Shown one piece after another: positions 6,703 to 20,809 of a stretch of 64,000 nt of DNA; within the stretch, counting starts at the first letter, position 1, and each line of letters opens with the position of its first letter. The DNA lies in contig JAJECO010000091.1 in the NCBI GenBank assembly GCA_022822005.1, forward strand, positions 1-64,000, in the 5' to 3' direction. A program made the translations under genes and the position numbers. The stretch is from Candidatus Poribacteria bacterium. Its GTDB lineage: Bacteria; Poribacteria; WGA-4E; PCPOR2b. The notes under the pieces were generated by a model. That model was not told the DNA's origin. It did no database searches and worked only from the letters and a program-made list of their open reading frames with translations.

Positions 6703-7287
6703 TCAGATAATTCCTAACTTCTTTAGAAAGTATTCAGTCGGAATTGTTAGATCAAGTCCCCTTATCTCATCAGGGGTGTACCACCCGATGATATCCGCTT
6801 CATCGGACAGCGTCGCTGTATTCTGATCTACCGTCGCTCGGTATAACCGCCATTCGTGGAAATCCGCGCCGCGACGACACGGCTCCTCTAAGGTCTCCAC
6901 AAACACCGGCTTGTCAGGCCGGATCTCAATTCCCGCTTCCTCTGCTATCTCGCGTGCAACGGCGGTCTCCGGTGTCTCATCGTCCAAATCCCAATGCCCA
7001 GCGACAATTGTATATAGAAATGGAAACAACCTGCGATGGAATAGGAGAACCTTCCCCTCCCATTCGATAACCGCGCCGACGGAATAGTGTAGCAACTCAC
7101 TATCAGGTAAAATTCGGTAGCGCATCTGCGGATAGAGCATGATGAGGCGACTATCATTATACCCACAGCGCTCACATCGGTAGTATTCCCTTCCTTCAAC
7201 CGTATAAGGTTGGATGTATTCACTCCAGCACTTGGGGCAGTAGCTATGGGTCCTGTTATCTTGAGGGATTTTTCCTTTAACTTTCAC
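6703..7287 (-). CDS. Nudix hydrolase with N-terminal zinc ribbon
   Basis: An N-terminal four-Cys ribbon (CPKC ... CERC, spaced about 22 residues) precedes a Nudix fold with the catalytic box ending REIAEEAGIEI. The box has one residue more than usual between its leading Gly and the first Glu (GHWDLDDE, Gly-x6-Glu). The pairing resembles zinc-ribbon Nudix proteins of the NudC/NADH-pyrophosphatase type, which hydrolyse nucleoside diphosphates linked to another group; the exact substrate is open. The frame is open to a GTG at 7311, but the GTG at 7287 has a clear GAAGGA six bases upstream and is preferred. It appears monocistronic. Confidence 0.85.
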   Translation of the reverse strand: MKVKGKIPQDNRTHSYCPKCWSEYIQPYTVEGREYYRCERCGYNDSRLIMLYPQMRYRILPDSELLHYSVGAVIEWEGKVLLFHRRLFPFLYTIVAGHWDLDDETPETAVAREIAEEAGIEIRPDKPVFVETLEEPCRRGADFHEWRLYRATVDQNTATLSDEADIIGWYTPDEIRGLDLTIPTEYFLKKLGII

Positions 7288-7678
7288 GGTTTGTCCTTCG
7301 CTGGATCTCACCAGCCTCCACGTCTTCCCAAGATTATCTTTCCAAACTCCGCTTATTATAACCTGAGTTGCTAGTTGCTAAGCCGGCTCGGCTTGGATAG
7401 GCATATCCAAGTCTCGGACTCTCCCCGATAAATCGGGACAGGCGGAACGGAACCATCTTTGCGCGTGTGCAGGGGATTTGTCAATCCACTGCGAGCAGTG
7501 AGGAACTCGATTTCGTTTTCATGCTTCCGCTTTGCGACATTTCAGATCAATAGCAACTTGCGTTATTATATCATACTGCGTCCGTTTTTTTTGAAAGTTG
7601 ATTTTTTTCTTTCACTTTATCCAGTTATCGCCTAAAATAGGGTGGTCGCGTTAGAGCGTGTAGAAAGGAAACAGAAGT
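7288..7678. other. intergenic region with small palindromes
   Basis: About 390 bases between the divergent Nudix and M28 peptidase genes, with no convincing ORF. It holds a perfect 8-bp-arm hairpin (CTTGGATA/TATCCAAG, 7392-7411) and the 14-bp palindrome CCCGATAAATCGGG (7424-7437), which recurs exactly at 14872-14885. The right end carries T-runs and the candidate promoter listed separately. Confidence 0.5.
7611..7638 (+). promoter_or_regulatory. candidate sigma70-type promoter for the M28 peptidase gene
   Basis: TTCACT (7611-7616), a 16-base spacer and TAAAAT (7633-7638), about 40 bases before the ATG at 7679. The -35 is imperfect. TAAAAT is a -10 form seen before other genes here (15035, 27060, 57907). 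Confidence 0.4.
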
Positions 7679-10245: not shown

Positions 10246-10298
10246 TAAAAAGATTTCACCTGAATCCCAAGATGAAGCCATAGGTACAGGAGGACGCA

Positions 10299-11351
10299 AT
10301 GAATTTCTATCACGGCACAACCTTACAGAATGCGATTAAAATTGCTGAGATGGGCTTTCTCCCAAGAAAGGGTGTGGTCTGGTTCACGACAAGCAAGCAC
10401 CGTGCCCAACGTCGTGCCAAGCAGAAAGCGCGTAAAATAGCTAGCTCGCCGTTTGTCTTCACTTGCGAAATTAATGTCCAAAACTTGTCTAACCGCCTTG
10501 GAAAACATCTCGTTATGCGCAGCAAGGGGTTTCTTGCCATCAGGAGGCGTGTCCCACCAACGGTGATACTGAACTCATCCGAACTGATTGCTAAGTGGGT
10601 CAGTCAGATACTCCAAGGTGAATCCTATGAGAGCATTAGTCCGGATCACCCCGGAATAGATCGGTTGTCGCGTTGGGTGGAGAACCGCATAAACGCCGGC
10701 ACAGACAAGGCTATCCGTCCAAAGGAACTGTCACAGCGGCTACAGCAATGGCTTCCCGATTTTTTTCGAAGGATCACGATCATACCCGAAAATCTACGCT
10801 TTGACTATTCTCCTGAACTTGTTGGATTTGAGATAGAACCTTCGTCAGAACCGGTCGATTCACAGGAAGAAAATGCACTTGATGCCCTTACCCACGCGAA
10901 ACCGAAACGACGCATCCGCGGTCTTGCACTGCTGGCACAGCTTGAACATGAAGATCTATATGACTGGTGCACACTATTACTCTTGGATGAGTCCGCAGAG
11001 GTTCGCATCGCTGCCTTACAAACAATAGTTCAGTGCGACGACGGAGATCCGGAGGCTATCCAACCGTTTGCTGAATCTGAAAACAAACGGATTCGAGCAG
11101 CAGCGATTGCTGCGCTTGCCAAGCATTCCGCCGAAGACGCGCCTCGTTGGTTCGAGCGAGGATTGAAAGACCGTGAAGCGTGTGTACGCCTTGAAACCGC
11201 CTCGCTGCTTCCAACACTGGATGTAAGTCAACATCGGCGGATTTTTGAGCTCGCGCTCTATGATCCCAACCCTTCAATCAAACACCTTGCAGAAAAACTC
11301 ACTGCGGGGAAAGGTTATGCAGATGCAAGGCAGATGAGGAGTTGGCAATGA
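10299..11351 (+). CDS. ART/KptA-like N-terminal domain with HEAT repeats, copy 1
   Basis: A 350-residue protein of two parts. The first ~95 residues begin MNFYHGTTLQNAIKIAEMGF, then VVWFTTSKHRAQRRA, SPFVFTCEINVQNL and a closing VPPTVI. This order (YHGT, W-F-T-T-x-K with a trailing Ala helix, a PFV strand, VPPxxI) resembles the ADP-ribosyltransferase fold, particularly RNA 2'-phosphotransferase (KptA/Tpt1) proteins. After a linker with PGIDRLSRWVENR come about five HEAT-like repeats (residues ~200-340), such as RIRAAAIAALAKHSAEDAP. The ATG follows AGGAGG. A paralogue lies 56 bases downstream. Relative to it, this copy lacks about eight residues after VPPTVI and has a longer C-terminus. Catalysis is unproven; the HEAT part suggests protein binding. 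Confidence 0.7.
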   Translation: MNFYHGTTLQNAIKIAEMGFLPRKGVVWFTTSKHRAQRRAKQKARKIASSPFVFTCEINVQNLSNRLGKHLVMRSKGFLAIRRRVPPTVILNSSELIAKWVSQILQGESYESISPDHPGIDRLSRWVENRINAGTDKAIRPKELSQRLQQWLPDFFRRITIIPENLRFDYSPELVGFEIEPSSEPVDSQEENALDALTHAKPKRRIRGLALLAQLEHEDLYDWCTLLLLDESAEVRIAALQTIVQCDDGDPEAIQPFAESENKRIRAAAIAALAKHSAEDAPRWFERGLKDREACVRLETASLLPTLDVSQHRRIFELALYDPNPSIKHLAEKLTAGKGYADARQMRSWQ

Positions 11352-11407
11352 AATTCACGCTTCATAAAAGGATTCTACCTGAATCTCAAGCATAGGCGGA
11401 ACCTACT

Positions 11408-12466
11408 ATGAACTTCTATCACGGCACAACCGTACGAAATGCGATCAAAATCGTCGAGATCGGCTTTCTCCCACGAAAGGGGGCGGTTTGGTTCACCACG
11501 AGCAAGCAGTATGCTCAAGGCCGTGCCAAGCAGAAGGCGCGTAGAACGAGTAGCTCACCGTTTGTCCTTGCCTGTGATATTGATATCCAAGAGCTGTATA
11601 ACCGCCTTGAAAAAAAACTGGTTATGCGCGGTGGAGGAGTTATCGCAATCCGAGGGCATGTCCCATCAACTGTAATACGCTCACATCTTACGGTAGAGTT
11701 ACTCAACTCACCCGAACAGATCGCTAAGTGGGTGAATCAGAGGCTGGGGCGTAAATCCCACGAAGGTATCAGCCCCCGTCACCCCGGAATAGAGCGTCTG
11801 TCGCGTTGGATGGAAAATCGTACTTCCTCTGGCACCGGCAGCACCATCCGTCCGGACGAACTATCACAGAAGCTGCAGCAATGGCTGCCTGACTTTTTTC
11901 AAGGGATCGAGATTACGCTCGAAGATTTGCGATTTGACTGTTTTCCCGAACTGGCAGAATCTGAAAAAACCGCACCGCCAGAGCCGATCGATTCACGGGA
12001 GGAAAACGCACTCGATGACCTCGCCGCCGCGAAACCGAAACGACGCATCCGCGGTCTGAAAACGCTGGCACGGCTTGGGAACGAAGATCTCTATGACTGG
12101 TGCACGATGTTCCTCTCGGATGAATCACTCGACGTTCGCATCGCCGCCTTACAGGCAGTTGCACGATGCGACGAAGGAGACCCAGAGGTCATCCTGCCAT
12201 TCGCCGAATCTCAAGATAAACGGATTCGAGGCGCAGCGATTGCCGCACTTGCCAAGCATTCCATCGAAGATGCTCCCTGCTGGTTTGAGCGAGGTCTGAA
12301 AGACCGTGAGGCGTGTGTGCGCCTTGAAACCGCCGCTCTGCTTCCGACGCTGGAGGTAAGCCAACACCGACGGATTTTTGAACTCGCGCTCTACGATCCC
12401 AATCCAGAGATTAAGAACCTCGCACAGAAACTCACCGCTGGAAAGGGTTATACAGGAGCCAGATGA
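11408..12466 (+). CDS. ART/KptA-like N-terminal domain with HEAT repeats, copy 2
   Basis: A 352-residue tandem paralogue of the preceding gene, with the same N-terminus (MNFYHGTTVRNAIKIVEIGF), the same WFTTSK and VPSTVI positions, the PGIERLSRWMENR linker and the same HEAT array (RIRGAAIAALAKHSIEDAP). After VPSTVI it keeps RSHLTVEL, which copy 1 lacks. The ribosome site is weaker (GGCGGA). The ~40-base leader also resembles that of copy 1 (CCTGAATC..CAAG), so the duplication took the upstream region along. Both copies are open and similar throughout, which suggests retained function rather than decay. Role unknown; see copy 1 for the fold argument. Confidence 0.7.
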   Translation: MNFYHGTTVRNAIKIVEIGFLPRKGAVWFTTSKQYAQGRAKQKARRTSSSPFVLACDIDIQELYNRLEKKLVMRGGGVIAIRGHVPSTVIRSHLTVELLNSPEQIAKWVNQRLGRKSHEGISPRHPGIERLSRWMENRTSSGTGSTIRPDELSQKLQQWLPDFFQGIEITLEDLRFDCFPELAESEKTAPPEPIDSREENALDDLAAAKPKRRIRGLKTLARLGNEDLYDWCTMFLSDESLDVRIAALQAVARCDEGDPEVILPFAESQDKRIRGAAIAALAKHSIEDAPCWFERGLKDREACVRLETAALLPTLEVSQHRRIFELALYDPNPEIKNLAQKLTAGKGYTGAR

Positions 12467-16319: not shown

Positions 16320-16402
16320 AAGTAAACGCAACACTCTTAAGTCTGAGCAACTTCAACGCTTAATCTGAAGTTTATTGACAACCAAATTTGATGGAGGTTA
16401 AT

Positions 16403-17836
16403 ATGGGAATGCCTATTTCAAGCTACACTGTCTTGAACGCACTCAGCTCTGATAGCGAACGAGGTGGAACTCAATCTTATGCGACACTATCGCATGAAAT
16501 TCATGAAACTGCGGCTGCCGCATTGGAACCGTTTAATCTGTTTGCCTTTATAATTCATGATCCGCAAACCCATCCTGAGTTCCACGAGCGAATAAGTCAT
16601 ATATTTAGTGCCCTAGACGTAACTACAGGAAATAAGTTCTTGTTCTTTGCCCTTGTTGATCCACCAGAAGAGTGGTCAAGCAATGCAGCGAGGAGGAATT
16701 ATTATAAGCATTTGCGATCTTGGCAGCCTCGGATATTATTGGACCCTCACAATGCAATTACTTCCGCAGATACAAGCACAGCAGCCCTTGCACTGGCTAA
16801 AAGCTTGAACATATCTATTGACAATCTTCCTTGTCTCGTAGTGACTAGGGATTTCAGGCTCGAGAATGTTCACTGGGTCAAAACTTGTCCTGATCACGTT
16901 GCGGCGCAGCTTACGCTTCTAGGATCTTATGCCACCACATACGAAGATCCTCCTCTCTATCCTCTTACACGCCAAATTGACCTCTGTGGAGGAAGTGGTA
17001 TTGAACTTTTGGGGAATGTTAGTATGGCAAAGGCTCTAGCTGATGTTATGAGCTTCGCTATTCTAAATAATAACCGTGTACCCAATTCTCAGAGAGAACA
17101 GGCCCTTGAACAAGCCAGAAAAACACTACTAGAATTACGGAGCGATCTGATTCTACTGAAAAAAGCTTTTCGCGCCAGTAAGACGGAAGAACTAGATGAC
17201 CTAGATGACCTCTGTGAGACAATCGGCTCATTTCTCGGACTTGCTAATCCTCGGGATCATCTAAATTTGGCTGATTTCATTGATATAGATGAAAGGTATC
17301 TGGAACCCGAATCTAGAATAATGCTAAAAACCGCACATAGAGTGGTAAATTTGCTTAAGGATCCACTTCCTGGATTCTACCGCCTTGTTGGTGGTGTTGA
17401 TTATACCCCAGGGCTTATCTGTCTAGCGAAAGCATTTGAAAGGGAGATTAATTTATCCTATGTTCATAAGATGCGTGAAGAACTTAGCGTTCTGTTGCCG
17501 GATTACTTTGATAAATATCAGGAAGGTCGTACGGCGAGATATTCAAGCGTAGATTTCAACATAAGGAAGGGGGATACTGATAAATGGCTTCCGCCGGGTA
17601 TACTTCAATCATTGCGGGCTTATGAAGCTAAATTTTCAGTGAACGAATCACACCCAGAAAAACCCTTATTGAATCGGTGGAAACAAATAGGAGGGCTACG
17701 TAATAAGGCAGCCCATACTGAATTGATGGATTACCGGTCAGTTCAGGATGTCCAGGCAAATCTTAATAAATTATCAGACGCAGGGTTCTTTGCGGAAATG
17801 GATAGCCATAAACGGTATTATAGAAACCCTCATTAA
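16403..17836 (+). CDS. hypothetical protein with C-terminal HEPN-like RNKAAH motif
   Basis: A 477-residue soluble protein without a clear family. The ATG at 16403 is chosen because GGAGG lies five bases upstream; an ATG at 16391 overlaps that site. The N-terminal ~190 residues alternate strands and helices (FNLFAFIIHDPQTHPEF, KFLFFALVDPPEEW, LPCLVVTRDFRL) in a way reminiscent of a thioredoxin-like fold, which is speculative. A helical C-terminal half ends in GLRNKAAHTELMDY. R433-x4-H438 is the catalytic motif of HEPN ribonucleases, and its sequence context (RNxxAH) is typical. It sits directly upstream of a restriction-modification gene, so a defence role is a reasonable inference. Confidence 0.75.
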   Translation: MGMPISSYTVLNALSSDSERGGTQSYATLSHEIHETAAAALEPFNLFAFIIHDPQTHPEFHERISHIFSALDVTTGNKFLFFALVDPPEEWSSNAARRNYYKHLRSWQPRILLDPHNAITSADTSTAALALAKSLNISIDNLPCLVVTRDFRLENVHWVKTCPDHVAAQLTLLGSYATTYEDPPLYPLTRQIDLCGGSGIELLGNVSMAKALADVMSFAILNNNRVPNSQREQALEQARKTLLELRSDLILLKKAFRASKTEELDDLDDLCETIGSFLGLANPRDHLNLADFIDIDERYLEPESRIMLKTAHRVVNLLKDPLPGFYRLVGGVDYTPGLICLAKAFEREINLSYVHKMREELSVLLPDYFDKYQEGRTARYSSVDFNIRKGDTDKWLPPGILQSLRAYEAKFSVNESHPEKPLLNRWKQIGGLRNKAAHTELMDYRSVQDVQANLNKLSDAGFFAEMDSHKRYYRNPH

Positions 17837-17933: not shown

Positions 17934-17984
17934 ATGGTTTCTCGTGATGCGTGGAGAAACGTTGCTCACCACAGAAGTGCGTAA
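17934..17984 (+). other. truncated gene start cut by a repeat end
   Basis: A strong ribosome site (AAAGGAG, 17921-17927) and ATG open a 16-codon frame (MVSRDAWRNVAHHRSA) that stops inside GTGCGTAAGTCCTA (17977-17990). That sequence is the same end found on miniature elements A and B. It looks like the 5' end of a gene whose body was lost when a repeat inserted or recombined here. Confidence 0.4.
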
Positions 17985-18022
17985 GTCCTACATTATTTCC
18001 TACTGAAAGAAATACTCACAAC

Positions 18023-20809
18023 ATGCGCCTATCATGGAATGAAATCCGCGCCCGTGCCGCCGCATTCGCTCAGGAATGGGCAGACGCAGGCTACGAAAGA
18101 GGACAAACCCACCTGTTCTATCAGGAATTTTTCGCCATCTTCGATCTACCCGTACGACGAGTCGCTGCGTTTGAGGAGCCCGTTAAACTGCTCGGCGATA
18201 GGCGTGGGTTTATCGATCTGTTTTGGAAAGGGGTGCTCCTCGTTGAGCAGAAAAGCGAGGGGCGCGATTTAGCAGAAGCGAAAACCCAAGCACTTTCTTA
18301 CTTCCCCGGCATCAACGACGCTGACCTGCCGCGCTACCTTCTGTTAAGCGATTTTCAGACCTTTGAACTATACGACCTCGACGAAGATGAAAGCGTCGCT
18401 TTTACTCTCGCTGAACTGCCCCAACATGTCGAAAAGTTCAGCTTCATCTTAGGTGTGCAGAAACGATCCTTCAGGGATCAAGATCCGGTCAATATCGAAG
18501 CCTCCGAACGCGTTGGGCAACTCCACGATGCGTTGGCTGATGCCAGCTACACGGGGCACGATCTGGAACAATTCCTGGTCCGCATCGTTTTCTGTTTCTT
18601 TGCCGACGACACCGGCATCTTTGAGCCACGTGACATTTTTCTCGATCTGTTAGAGAACCGGACACAGGAAGATGGCTCAGACCTCGGTGGTTGGTTAGCA
18701 CAACTCTTTCAAGTGCTCAACACACCCGTAGACCGCCGCTCCACAATCCTTGATGAAGACCTCGCCCGCTTCCCATACGTCAACGGTGATCTGTTCCGCG
18801 AACAACTGCTCATCCCATCATTCAATCCCGAAATGCGTCAACGACTCATTGATGCCTGTCATTTCAATTGGTCGGAAATCTCCCCGGCAATTTTCGGCTC
18901 ACTCTTTCAATCGGTGATGGACAAGGATGAACGCCGCGCCCAAGGTGCACACTATACCACCGAAAAGAACATCCTCAAGGTGATTGAGCCGCTATTCCTT
19001 GACGAGTTACGCGCTGAGTTCCAACGCCTGCGTGCCCGTAGGGACAATCGTCGTCTCCCCGACCTAATTGCCTTTCAGCAGAAACTCGGCCGGTTGCGCT
19101 TTTTTGATCCAGCGTGCGGCTGCGGCAATTTTCTCATCATTGCGTATCGTGAGCTGCGGACATTGGAAATAGAGGTGTTAAAGGAGATGCGGCCCCATGG
19201 TCAACTTGACCTACTGGCGCAGTCACTTTCGGTGGTCGATGTGGATGCGTTCTACGGGATCGAGTTGGGCGAGTTTCCCGCGCATATCGCGGAGGTTGCC
19301 CTGTGGATGATGGACCATATCATGAACAACCGCCTGAGTTTGGAGTTTGGGCAGACCTATGCCCGCATTCCGTTGGAAAAGTCTCCGCATATCAGATATG
19401 ACGATGCGTTGGAGTTCGATTGGGCGGAACTGCTGCCGCCGGAGGAGTGCTCCTATGTGCTCGGCAATCCACCGTTTGTGGGGGCAAAACTCCAATCGCC
19501 TCAACAGCGCGAACAGGTCCGCCGTATCGCTGCATTGGGTAGAAGCGGCGGCACCCTTGACTATGTGAGCGCGTGGTTTATCAAGGCGGGTGAATACATC
19601 CAGCAGAGCGAGGCGCGAATCGGTTTTGTGGCGACCAATTCCATCACCCAAGGCGAACAGGTGGCGCAGCTGTGGCCCCTCCTGTTTGACCGTTGCAAGT
19701 TGGACATCGCCTTTGCCCACCGTACCTTCGCTTGGGGATCGGACGCCCGTGGGGTGGCGCATGTTCACGTCGTCATCATTGGGTTGGTAAAACAGGGGGC
19801 CGCGCTGCAGGAAAAGCGATTATTTTCCTACAACACCCCCAAAGATGAACCACATGAAAGCCATCACGCCGCCCTTTCGCCCTACCTATTTGATGCCGGT
19901 GGATTGACTGATCCACGGATTATTGTAAAAGAGGAATCTCGGCAGATTAATGGGCTGCCGAAGCTAATCATTGGTTCGCAACCCATTGATGACGGAAACT
20001 ATATTTTCAAAGCAGATGAACGCGCTGCTTTTTTGCGAGAAGAACCCAATGCCGAACCGTATTTACGTCCGTACGTGGGAAGCCGGGAGTTTCTACAGGG
20101 TGGAGAACGTTGGATTTTGGCACTTCAGGCTGCCAATCCGACGGACCTTAGAGCGATGCCGAAAGTTGTGGAGCGGATGCAGGCGGTAAGAGCATTCAGG
20201 GCAAAGAGCAAACGCAAGAGCACTCTCGCCATTGCTGATTACCCAACGCAATACAATGTCAACGTTGTTCCAGATACACCGTTTTTGGTTGTGCCAGAGG
20301 TCAGTTCTGAAAGGCGAGACTACATTCCAATTGGGTGGCTAGAGCCGCCGGTAATTCCAAGCAATCTTGTCCGTATCATCCAAAACGCCAATAAACCCTT
20401 GTTTGCGCTGCTTACCTCTGCTATGCACATGGCTTGGCTACGTCACATTGGCGGCCGCTTAGAGAGCCGTTACCGTTACTCCATCGGTTTGGTGTACAAC
20501 ACCTTCCCGATGCCCCCGGTTCCTGAAGAACGGCTGCAACGCCTCGAACCCTACGCGGCCGCTGTCCTCGCCGCCCGCGCTGCACATCCTGACGCGACAT
20601 TGGCAGATCTGTATGATCCCGATGTGATGCCCCCCAATCTCCGCAAAGCACACCGTGACTTGGACAGTGCCGTTGATAAACTCTACCAACGTTCGGGATT
20701 TGCCTCGGACCGTGAGCGCGTGGAGCACCTGCTCGGTTTGTATGAGAAAATGATCGCCCCATTGGCAGCAAACATCAAGCCGAAACGGAGGCGACGACGG
20801 CGGAGATAG
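18023..20809 (+). CDS. single-chain restriction-modification enzyme, MmeI/type IIL-like
   Basis: A 928-residue fusion of nuclease, methyltransferase and target recognition. The N-terminus carries a PD-(D/E)xK site, D65-x9-E75-x-K77 (IDLFWKGVLLVEQKS), with the same spacing as MmeI. A helical spacer leads to GAHYTTEKNI (~310), SAM-binding motif I DPACGCGNF (362-370) and the amino-methyltransferase motif NPPF (482-485). The C-terminal third should be the DNA-recognition domain, ending in a basic tail (KRRRRRRR). Such enzymes methylate adenine in one strand and cut at a distance. The frame opens at GTG 17951, but ATG 18023 matches the family start (MRLSWNEIRARAAAFA). It appears complete. Confidence 0.9.
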   Translation: MRLSWNEIRARAAAFAQEWADAGYERGQTHLFYQEFFAIFDLPVRRVAAFEEPVKLLGDRRGFIDLFWKGVLLVEQKSEGRDLAEAKTQALSYFPGINDADLPRYLLLSDFQTFELYDLDEDESVAFTLAELPQHVEKFSFILGVQKRSFRDQDPVNIEASERVGQLHDALADASYTGHDLEQFLVRIVFCFFADDTGIFEPRDIFLDLLENRTQEDGSDLGGWLAQLFQVLNTPVDRRSTILDEDLARFPYVNGDLFREQLLIPSFNPEMRQRLIDACHFNWSEISPAIFGSLFQSVMDKDERRAQGAHYTTEKNILKVIEPLFLDELRAEFQRLRARRDNRRLPDLIAFQQKLGRLRFFDPACGCGNFLIIAYRELRTLEIEVLKEMRPHGQLDLLAQSLSVVDVDAFYGIELGEFPAHIAEVALWMMDHIMNNRLSLEFGQTYARIPLEKSPHIRYDDALEFDWAELLPPEECSYVLGNPPFVGAKLQSPQQREQVRRIAALGRSGGTLDYVSAWFIKAGEYIQQSEARIGFVATNSITQGEQVAQLWPLLFDRCKLDIAFAHRTFAWGSDARGVAHVHVVIIGLVKQGAALQEKRLFSYNTPKDEPHESHHAALSPYLFDAGGLTDPRIIVKEESRQINGLPKLIIGSQPIDDGNYIFKADERAAFLREEPNAEPYLRPYVGSREFLQGGERWILALQAANPTDLRAMPKVVERMQAVRAFRAKSKRKSTLAIADYPTQYNVNVVPDTPFLVVPEVSSERRDYIPIGWLEPPVIPSNLVRIIQNANKPLFALLTSAMHMAWLRHIGGRLESRYRYSIGLVYNTFPMPPVPEERLQRLEPYAAAVLAARAAHPDATLADLYDPDVMPPNLRKAHRDLDSAVDKLYQRSGFASDRERVEHLLGLYEKMIAPLAANIKPKRRRRRRR

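What the first reader, a model, noticed from the sequence alone, without database searches (positions are those of the whole stretch)
10299..12466. Tandem pair joining an ART/KptA-like N-terminus to HEAT repeats
Both proteins open with MNFYHGTT, then (V/A)VWFTTSK and an Ala-rich helix, a PFV strand and VP(P/S)TVI. That order mimics RNA 2'-phosphotransferase (KptA) and other NAD-using ADP-ribosyltransferases. Both then carry about five HEAT repeats. I know of no described family with this architecture. The tandem copies have kept both halves, and copy 1 lacks about eight residues present in copy 2. Such a protein could be an NAD-dependent modifier aimed by its HEAT arm, perhaps in stress or defence.
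Basis: partly seen in the sequence, partly recalled or inferred. Interest (0 to 1): 0.72.

Follow-up and report, generated by a model that had tools for sequence, protein, structure and literature searches.

The report
ART–HEAT protein pair in Poribacteria
Two neighbouring genes in an uncultured Poribacteria bacterium encode proteins that join an NAD-binding ADP-ribosyltransferase fold, closest to the catalytic half of the RNA-repair enzyme KptA, to a small helical piece shared with a leucine/lysine-pathway enzyme and to a HEAT-repeat arm; I found this combination only in this phylum, and its target is unknown.

Summary
Two tandem ORFs (10299-11351, 11408-12466; 72% identical) encode an N-terminal ADP-ribosyltransferase (ART) lobe and five HEAT repeats. 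A model of the N-terminus finds RNA 2'-phosphotransferase KptA/Tpt1 as its best 18 PDB fold matches. A profile also finds KptA, weakly (E 0.006). All 37 distinct homologues keep YHGT, GFxP, WFT and AxxRAxxKA. All domains are under purifying selection.

Residues ~97-170 are homologous to the C-terminal tail of isopropylmalate/homocitrate-synthase-like enzymes (hhalign 99.6%, E 2e-23). It also follows the ART in a second Poribacteria family without HEAT.

This is not KptA: the winged-helix RNA lobe, holding three of the four essential RNA-2'-phosphate residues, is absent. Defence is unsupported: the sister genus carries the gene among housekeeping genes, phages and plasmids gave no relative, and evolution is slow; yet it is repeatedly lost. 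Best reading: a single-lobe, KptA-like, probably active NAD-dependent ADP-ribosyltransferase, aimed by its HEAT arm at an unknown partner. Catalysis and target are inferred. Novelty: a new architecture of a known superfamily, found only in Poribacteria.

The parts
10299..11351 (+). Copy 1, 350 aa: ART lobe + middle module + five HEAT repeats
10299..10568 (+). Copy 1 ART (KptA-like NAD-lobe) domain, residues 1-90: YHGTT, GFLPR, VWFTTSK, basic helix
   Evidence: alignment with copy 2 and homologues; A5 profile hit at 10299-10490
10572..10790 (+). Copy 1 middle module, homologous to the tail of IPMS/homocitrate-synthase-like enzymes
   Evidence: A8 profile hit E 2.4e-25 (the model includes this sequence); hhalign
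10851..11309 (+). Copy 1 HEAT arm
   Evidence: Pfam HEAT_2 E 3.6e-8, HEAT E 1.4e-5
11408..12466 (+). Copy 2, 352 aa: same architecture
11408..11686 (+). Copy 2 ART (KptA-like NAD-lobe) domain, residues 1-93; model strands 2-8, 27-30, 51-57, 72-75, 78-81
11678..11701 (+). Eight residues RSHLTVEL of copy 2 absent from copy 1 (end of ART / linker)
   Evidence: alignment
11696..11923 (+). Copy 2 middle module (IPMS/homocitrate-synthase tail-like), about residues 97-172
   Evidence: A8 hit 11696-11890, E 1.7e-27 (the model includes this sequence); hhalign 99.6%
11984..12442 (+). Copy 2 HEAT arm, ten helices = five repeats
   Evidence: Pfam HEAT_2 E 2.1e-7; model helices 196-343; Foldseek alphaRep HEAT hits
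10252..10278 (+). Leader segment upstream of copy 1 that resembles the one before copy 2 (CCTGAATCyCAAG)
   Evidence: read directly from the sequence
11370..11396 (+). Matching leader segment upstream of copy 2; suggests the duplication took the leader with it
   Evidence: read directly from the sequence

Best explanation
Each protein is a chromosomally encoded ADP-ribosyltransferase made of one KptA-like NAD+ lobe without the KptA RNA lobe, followed by an isopropylmalate/homocitrate-synthase-tail module and a HEAT arm. NAD+ is held by the HGT motif, the invariant basic helix (R39, K43) and the loop arginine R23, with the invariant aromatic W28 at the position of the second His of KptA (Tyr in PARPs). 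The HEAT arm docks a protein or other macromolecular partner, and the basic ART lobe transfers ADP-ribose to a group on that partner or on a nucleic acid it carries. The middle module forms part of the lid or a dimer contact. Shown here: the ART fold by profile and model, the HEAT arm, the homology of the middle module, invariance of the motif residues, purifying selection. Inferred: NAD+ use, transfer chemistry, target, role of each arm.
For: Fold: the residues 1-179 model (mean pLDDT 78; 82-93 over the first 90 residues in ten-residue blocks) has KptA/Tpt1 as its top 18 PDB matches, probability 1.00, E 5e-5 to 2.5e-3, then pertussis toxin S1 and other ARTs; the viral library returns KptA, DarT, rifampin-ART and ART-PolyVal proteins. 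Sequence: A4 profile to KptA 8tfi E 0.006, and PARP10 much weaker; Pfam KptA E 3e-4, PARP E 7e-4 and ART-PolyVal E 0.003 for the related protein L042, all below curated cut-offs. Function retained: Y4 H5 G6 T7, G19 F20, P22, W28 F29 T30, A36, R39, A40, K43, A44 in 37/37 homologues. CthTpt1 uses the His and Thr of HGT and arginines to hold NAD+ (PMC6333775). dN/dS 0.05-0.27 in ART and middle module, 0.08-0.34 in HEAT. ART net charge +9 to +18. The genome has one macrodomain and one ADP-ribosyl-glycohydrolase family protein, so ADP-ribose-processing proteins exist.
Against: All single-protein sequence hits are below curated cut-offs. The KptA second His is W, which I know of in no characterised ART. 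R23 is K in two homologues and missing in one. The KptA phosphate-caging Arg139 position appears to be filled by a variable residue. The model rests on eight sequences (pTM 0.60), and TM-scores are low (about 0.35), partly because the query holds the second domain. No partner, substrate or enzymatic datum exists. Repeated loss shows the gene is dispensable.
Confidence: 0.5

Rival explanations
1. Non-catalytic ART fold: the lobe binds NAD+ or ADP-ribose (or ADP-ribosylated partners) as a sensor or reader, and the HEAT arm transmits this to a partner.
For: W replaces the KptA second His; the third motif position is hydrophobic with no Glu; the R139-equivalent appears variable (PMC6333775).
Against: The H-H-h clade, to which KptA belongs by my own knowledge, has a hydrophobic third position (PMC9503650); position 28 is invariant and aromatic, and related Poribacteria ARTs have Tyr or Phe there (VYFS in L131, IFFA in L038), as PARPs have Tyr; HGT and the basic helix are invariant.
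Confidence: 0.22
2. A genuine RNA 2'-phosphotransferase in which the middle module and HEAT arm replaced the KptA RNA lobe.
For: KptA is the closest fold and sequence relative; no KptA (PF01885) found in the genome, so the role could be vacant; very basic ART lobe.
Against: Three of the four essential tetrad residues (Arg18, His19, Arg68 of CthTpt1) lie in the missing winged-helix RNA lobe (PMC6333775); the middle module is homologous to an enzyme tail, not to a winged helix; KptA is absent from most control genomes anyway (found in 3 of 14).
Confidence: 0.1
3. An anti-phage or stress effector that modifies or depletes NAD+ or a host target.
For: ARTs are common effectors; tandem duplication; recurrent loss and truncation at the g11 locus; a type IIG restriction enzyme lies 5.5 kb away.
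Against: The g11 neighbourhood is cyclophilins, DUF1844, K+ channel and YifB/ComM-like ATPase; no PADLOC match beyond HEAT repeats; no relatives in phage or plasmid records; slow evolution under purifying selection; the restriction enzyme is absent from the same place in G020 and G021.
Confidence: 0.1

Closest known systems
KptA/Tpt1 RNA 2'-phosphotransferase (PF01885)
   Same: ART fold of the NAD+ lobe, HGT motif, 'GIxP...VHLS' to 'GFxP...VWFT' region, hydrophobic third motif; best fold and profile matches
   Different: No winged-helix RNA lobe, so no Arg-His-Arg of the essential tetrad; W instead of second His; extra middle module and HEAT arm
PARP / H-Y-[EDQ] ARTs and DarT
   Same: WHGTT and IWF/VYF motifs resemble PARP 'LWHGT' and 'GIYF' (own knowledge of PARP); PARP is a recurring subthreshold Pfam hit
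   Different: No catalytic Glu/Asp/Gln at the third position; compact lobe; PARP hits below cut-off
ART-PolyVal (PF18760)
   Same: Subthreshold hit to the N-terminus of copy 2 (E 0.08) and of L042 (E 0.003)
   Different: That family is named for polyvalent proteins; no relative of these proteins was found in the phage records
Isopropylmalate/homocitrate-synthase-like HMGL enzymes, C-terminal tail
   Same: 72 aligned columns of the middle module, hhalign 99.6%
   Different: Here without the TIM barrel; fused to an ART. The HEAT-family version has lost the K-S-G motif that the second family partly keeps (S-G-K)
HEAT-repeat arms (PF13646; alphaRep structures)
   Same: Five canonical two-helix repeats
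   Different: Ordinary scaffold; only the fusion is unusual

Membership tests
ART superfamily | ART fold | tested here: met
   AlphaFold2 model, Foldseek top 18 KptA, then other ARTs
ART superfamily | Motif I His (HGT) in the first strand, conserved | tested here: met
   H5 G6 T7 in 37/37
ART superfamily | NAD+ binding and ADP-ribose transfer | not testable with these tools
   needs protein
KptA/Tpt1 (PF01885) | Score above the curated cut-off | tested here: not met
   no PF01885 row at E up to 10 for either copy; the NCBIfam RNA 2'-phosphotransferase model gives E 0.087 for copy 2; no PF01885 match in the genome
KptA/Tpt1 (PF01885) | N-terminal winged-helix RNA lobe with Arg-His...Arg of the tetrad | tested here: not met
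   protein starts at the HGT strand; tetrad residues as in PMC6333775
KptA/Tpt1 (PF01885) | Second His of the VHLS strand | tested here: not met
   W28 in 37/37
H-H-h clade of ARTs | His, His, hydrophobic active-site profile | tested here: inconclusive
   H, W, hydrophobic; clade profile from PMC9503650
H-Y-[EDQ] clade (PARP, DarT) | Third residue E, D or Q | tested here: not met
   mostly I, V, L or F, with invariant A80, at residues 78-81
HEAT repeat proteins | Pfam HEAT_2 above cut-off and helical repeats | tested here: met
IPMS/homocitrate-synthase tail module | Significant homology over the whole module | tested here: met
   hhalign 99.6%, E 2e-23; phmmer E 4e-11 to L036
IPMS/homocitrate-synthase tail module | Match to Pfam HCS_D2 itself | tested here: not met
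   HCS_D2 hits the HMGL enzyme just before and into the start of the module but not the ART proteins
Anti-phage defence system | Defence-island context or PADLOC model match | tested here: not met
   only a HEAT-repeat match; housekeeping context in g11

The most novel reading that the evidence does not exclude
A lineage-specific ART system in which a catalytic lobe related to RNA repair acquired a lid or allosteric module from isopropylmalate/homocitrate-synthase-like enzymes, so that ADP-ribosylation of a HEAT-bound partner is gated by a metabolite or by dimerisation.
Probability: 0.12. Interest if true: 0.78.

Novelty: new variant of a known kind. Interest (0 to 1): 0.55.

Why it matters
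It shows a KptA-like NAD+ lobe used without its RNA lobe and built into a chromosomal, slowly evolving protein with a targeting arm, in a phylum for which the paper search found no report on ADP-ribosyltransferases. The same lobe occurs in Poribacteria in several fusions (tail module alone, tail module plus HEAT, a 746-aa protein ending in HEAT), which gives a natural series for asking what ARTs of the RNA-repair branch do outside RNA repair. The borrowed metabolic-enzyme module makes metabolite control of an ART directly testable.

Tried and rejected
Chance resemblance of motifs: rejected by fold search, profile hits and 37/37 conservation. True KptA: rejected on the missing RNA lobe. Mobile or phage origin: no relative in viral contigs, phages or plasmids; the one phage hit for the second family, MT835478.1, is an HMGL enzyme tail on an unverified contig that looks bacterial. 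Defence island: rejected as unsupported. Conserved operon partner: none shared between genera; the g1 pair sits among sugar-metabolism-like genes and the g11 gene among housekeeping genes, so neighbours do not tell the function. PDB search with one sequence gave nothing and with the middle module gave nothing. The genome-collection scan reached only close relatives, all Poribacteria; presence in other phyla at lower identity was not tested.

Full report
Observation. A good ribosome-binding site (AGGAGG) precedes copy 1. A leader segment, CCTGAATCyCAAG, is shared upstream of both copies, as if the duplication took the leader with it (read by eye). Copy 1 lacks RSHLTVEL (copy 2 residues 91-98). 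The copy-1 orthologues of G019, G020 and G021 lack these residues too, so the gap is old. Copies 1 and 2 form separate clades across four genomes of the genus, so the duplication predates their split (support 1.00 and 0.87).

Organism and spread. Relatives in the genome collection are all Candidatus Poribacteria. Of 85 genomes held from the phylum, 42 have a match of some kind to copy 2, including the second family. The gene is a tandem pair in four genomes of the own genus (a third copy lies nearby in G020), and single in most genomes of genus g11 (same order) at 44-49% identity. It is absent from genus g10. No relative was found in the viral-contig, phage or plasmid collections.

ART domain. 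Single-sequence hits are weak: ART-PolyVal E 0.08 and KptA E 0.087 for copy 2. Related Poribacteria proteins with the same lobe are better: KptA E 3e-4, PARP E 7e-4 and ART-PolyVal E 0.003 for L042. A profile of 36 sequences puts KptA structures first in the PDB (8tfi E 0.006), with an exotoxin and PARP10 further down at E above 1. The AlphaFold2 model of residues 1-179, from eight sequences, gives strand-helix-strand-helix-strand-helix-strand-strand with pLDDT about 82-93 over the first 90 residues. Foldseek returns KptA/Tpt1 for all of the top 18 matches at probability 1.00, then pertussis toxin S1 and other ARTs. The viral library gives KptA, DarT, rifampin-ART and ART-PolyVal proteins. I regard the fold as established at about 95%.

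Active site. Y4 H5 G6 T7, G19 F20, P22, W28 F29 T30, A36, R39, A40, K43 and A44 are identical in 37 of 37 distinct homologues. In CthTpt1 the His and Thr of HGT hold the adenosine ribose, and Arg121, Arg139 and Arg140 cage the NAD+ phosphates (PMC6333775). R23 is a possible counterpart of Arg121 by position (34 R, 2 K, 1 gap). R39 and K43 lie on the helix that carries Arg139/140 in KptA; this is inferred from alignment, not from a superposition. The second His of KptA is Trp here, and Trp, Tyr or Phe in most related Poribacteria ARTs. The third motif is hydrophobic as in KptA. PMC9503650 names the ART clades H-H-h, H-Y-[EDQ] and R-S-E; this family reads H-aromatic-hydrophobic, between the first two. 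The ART lobe is very basic (+9 to +18), which suits nucleic acid or acidic partners.

Middle module. They match the C-terminal tail of Poribacteria HMGL-like enzymes (phmmer E 4e-11; hhalign 99.6%, E 2e-23, 72 columns). Those enzymes hit PF00682, then HCS_D2 just before and into the start of the module, and isopropylmalate, citramalate and homocitrate synthase models in NCBIfam, below the curated cut-offs. The same kind of enzyme with the same tail also occurs on a gut contig deposited as phage (MT835478.1), so the tail is probably not confined to Poribacteria. This suggests that the ARTs acquired it from the enzyme rather than the reverse. The module also follows the ART in a second family (own-genome member L003, 301 aa) that has an N-terminal helix-turn-helix-like unit and no HEAT. 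Its function here is unknown; lid or dimer contact is a guess from the position of the subdomain in isopropylmalate synthases (own knowledge).

HEAT arm. HEAT_2 is above its cut-off in both copies. The model has ten helices in five pairs at high confidence, and Foldseek finds artificial HEAT (alphaRep) proteins first.

Selection and loss. dN/dS is 0.05-0.27 in ART and middle module and 0.08-0.34 in HEAT for all pairs tested where it could be computed, so the domains are kept for function in both copies. In family f4 the gene sits between a DUF1844 gene and a K+ channel gene, downstream of two cyclophilins, in every genome examined. Genus g10 has the same gene row without it. G082 and G054 keep only the last 19-37 residues, G052 keeps the first 30 and last 29, G083 keeps only HEAT, and G028 keeps only ART plus middle module. 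Repeated loss means the gene is dispensable in that lineage. The own-genus pair is at another site, between a GNAT-like gene and an aldolase/enolase-like pair.

Mechanism. My commitment: an ADP-ribosyltransferase with a single KptA-like lobe, targeted by the HEAT arm, acting on a macromolecular partner or its nucleic acid, at 0.5. A non-catalytic NAD+/ADP-ribose reader is next (0.22). RNA 2'-phosphotransferase proper (0.1) is unlikely because the RNA lobe with Arg18, His19 and Arg68 is gone; the own genome has no PF01885 match. A defence effector (0.1) has no contextual support. The genome holds one macrodomain and one ADP-ribosyl-glycohydrolase family protein, which are common and only show that ADP-ribose-processing proteins exist.

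Novelty. No library searched holds this architecture, and the paper searches and the passages read did not turn up ART-HEAT fusions or Poribacteria ARTs; most subscription papers are not held. I call it a new variant of a known kind: ART superfamily, new architecture. Limits: few sequences behind the model, no test of other phyla at low identity, and no biochemical data.

Noticed in passing
L003:1222-2127 (G000:C22:154555-155103); L038, L040-L047: A second Poribacteria ART family: helix-turn-helix-like unit + KptA/PARP-like ART + isopropylmalate/homocitrate-synthase tail module, sometimes with two ART units in one protein (L042, L043), no HEAT.
   Followed up: partly
L131:1334-3589 and L132:145-1107 (G017): Two further ART proteins with the same lobe at about residues 113-190; L131 (746 aa) has a primase-like looking 'YSGARSLHVMIPFEAFP' stretch after the ART and HEAT repeats at its C-terminus, so ART and HEAT may have been joined more than once.
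   Followed up: partly
L036:34-1869, L037:616-2430: HMGL-like (isopropylmalate/homocitrate-synthase-like) enzymes with a Cache/PDC sensor domain at the C-terminus (PF22673, E 6e-17 in L036; similar sequence in L037), an odd pairing.
   Followed up: no
L152-L158, L063, L067: Remnants of the ART-HEAT gene at the fixed site between DUF1844 and K+ channel genes: five truncated or deleted forms, and no trace in genus g10.
   Followed up: yes
window 17951-20809: Type IIG restriction enzyme-methyltransferase (PADLOC PDLC03598, 1173 bits), next to ORF 16388-17836 whose C-terminus weakly resembles CARF-HEPN proteins (E 0.003).
   Followed up: no
L139 (MT835478.1): Unverified 'Bacteriophage sp.' contig carries an HMGL-like enzyme followed by a GntR/FadR-like regulator (by eye); probably bacterial DNA.
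   Followed up: partly
L058:6837-7217 and orthologues: A 127-aa protein 84-92% identical across genera g8-g11 with no Pfam or NCBIfam match; unusually conserved orphan between cyclophilins and DUF1844.
   Followed up: no
window 6703-7311: NUDIX hydrolase-like gene (by eye) close to the pair in the own genus; a NUDIX-like gene also lies two genes from the second ART family (L070:5374-5937). Could be chance.
   Followed up: no
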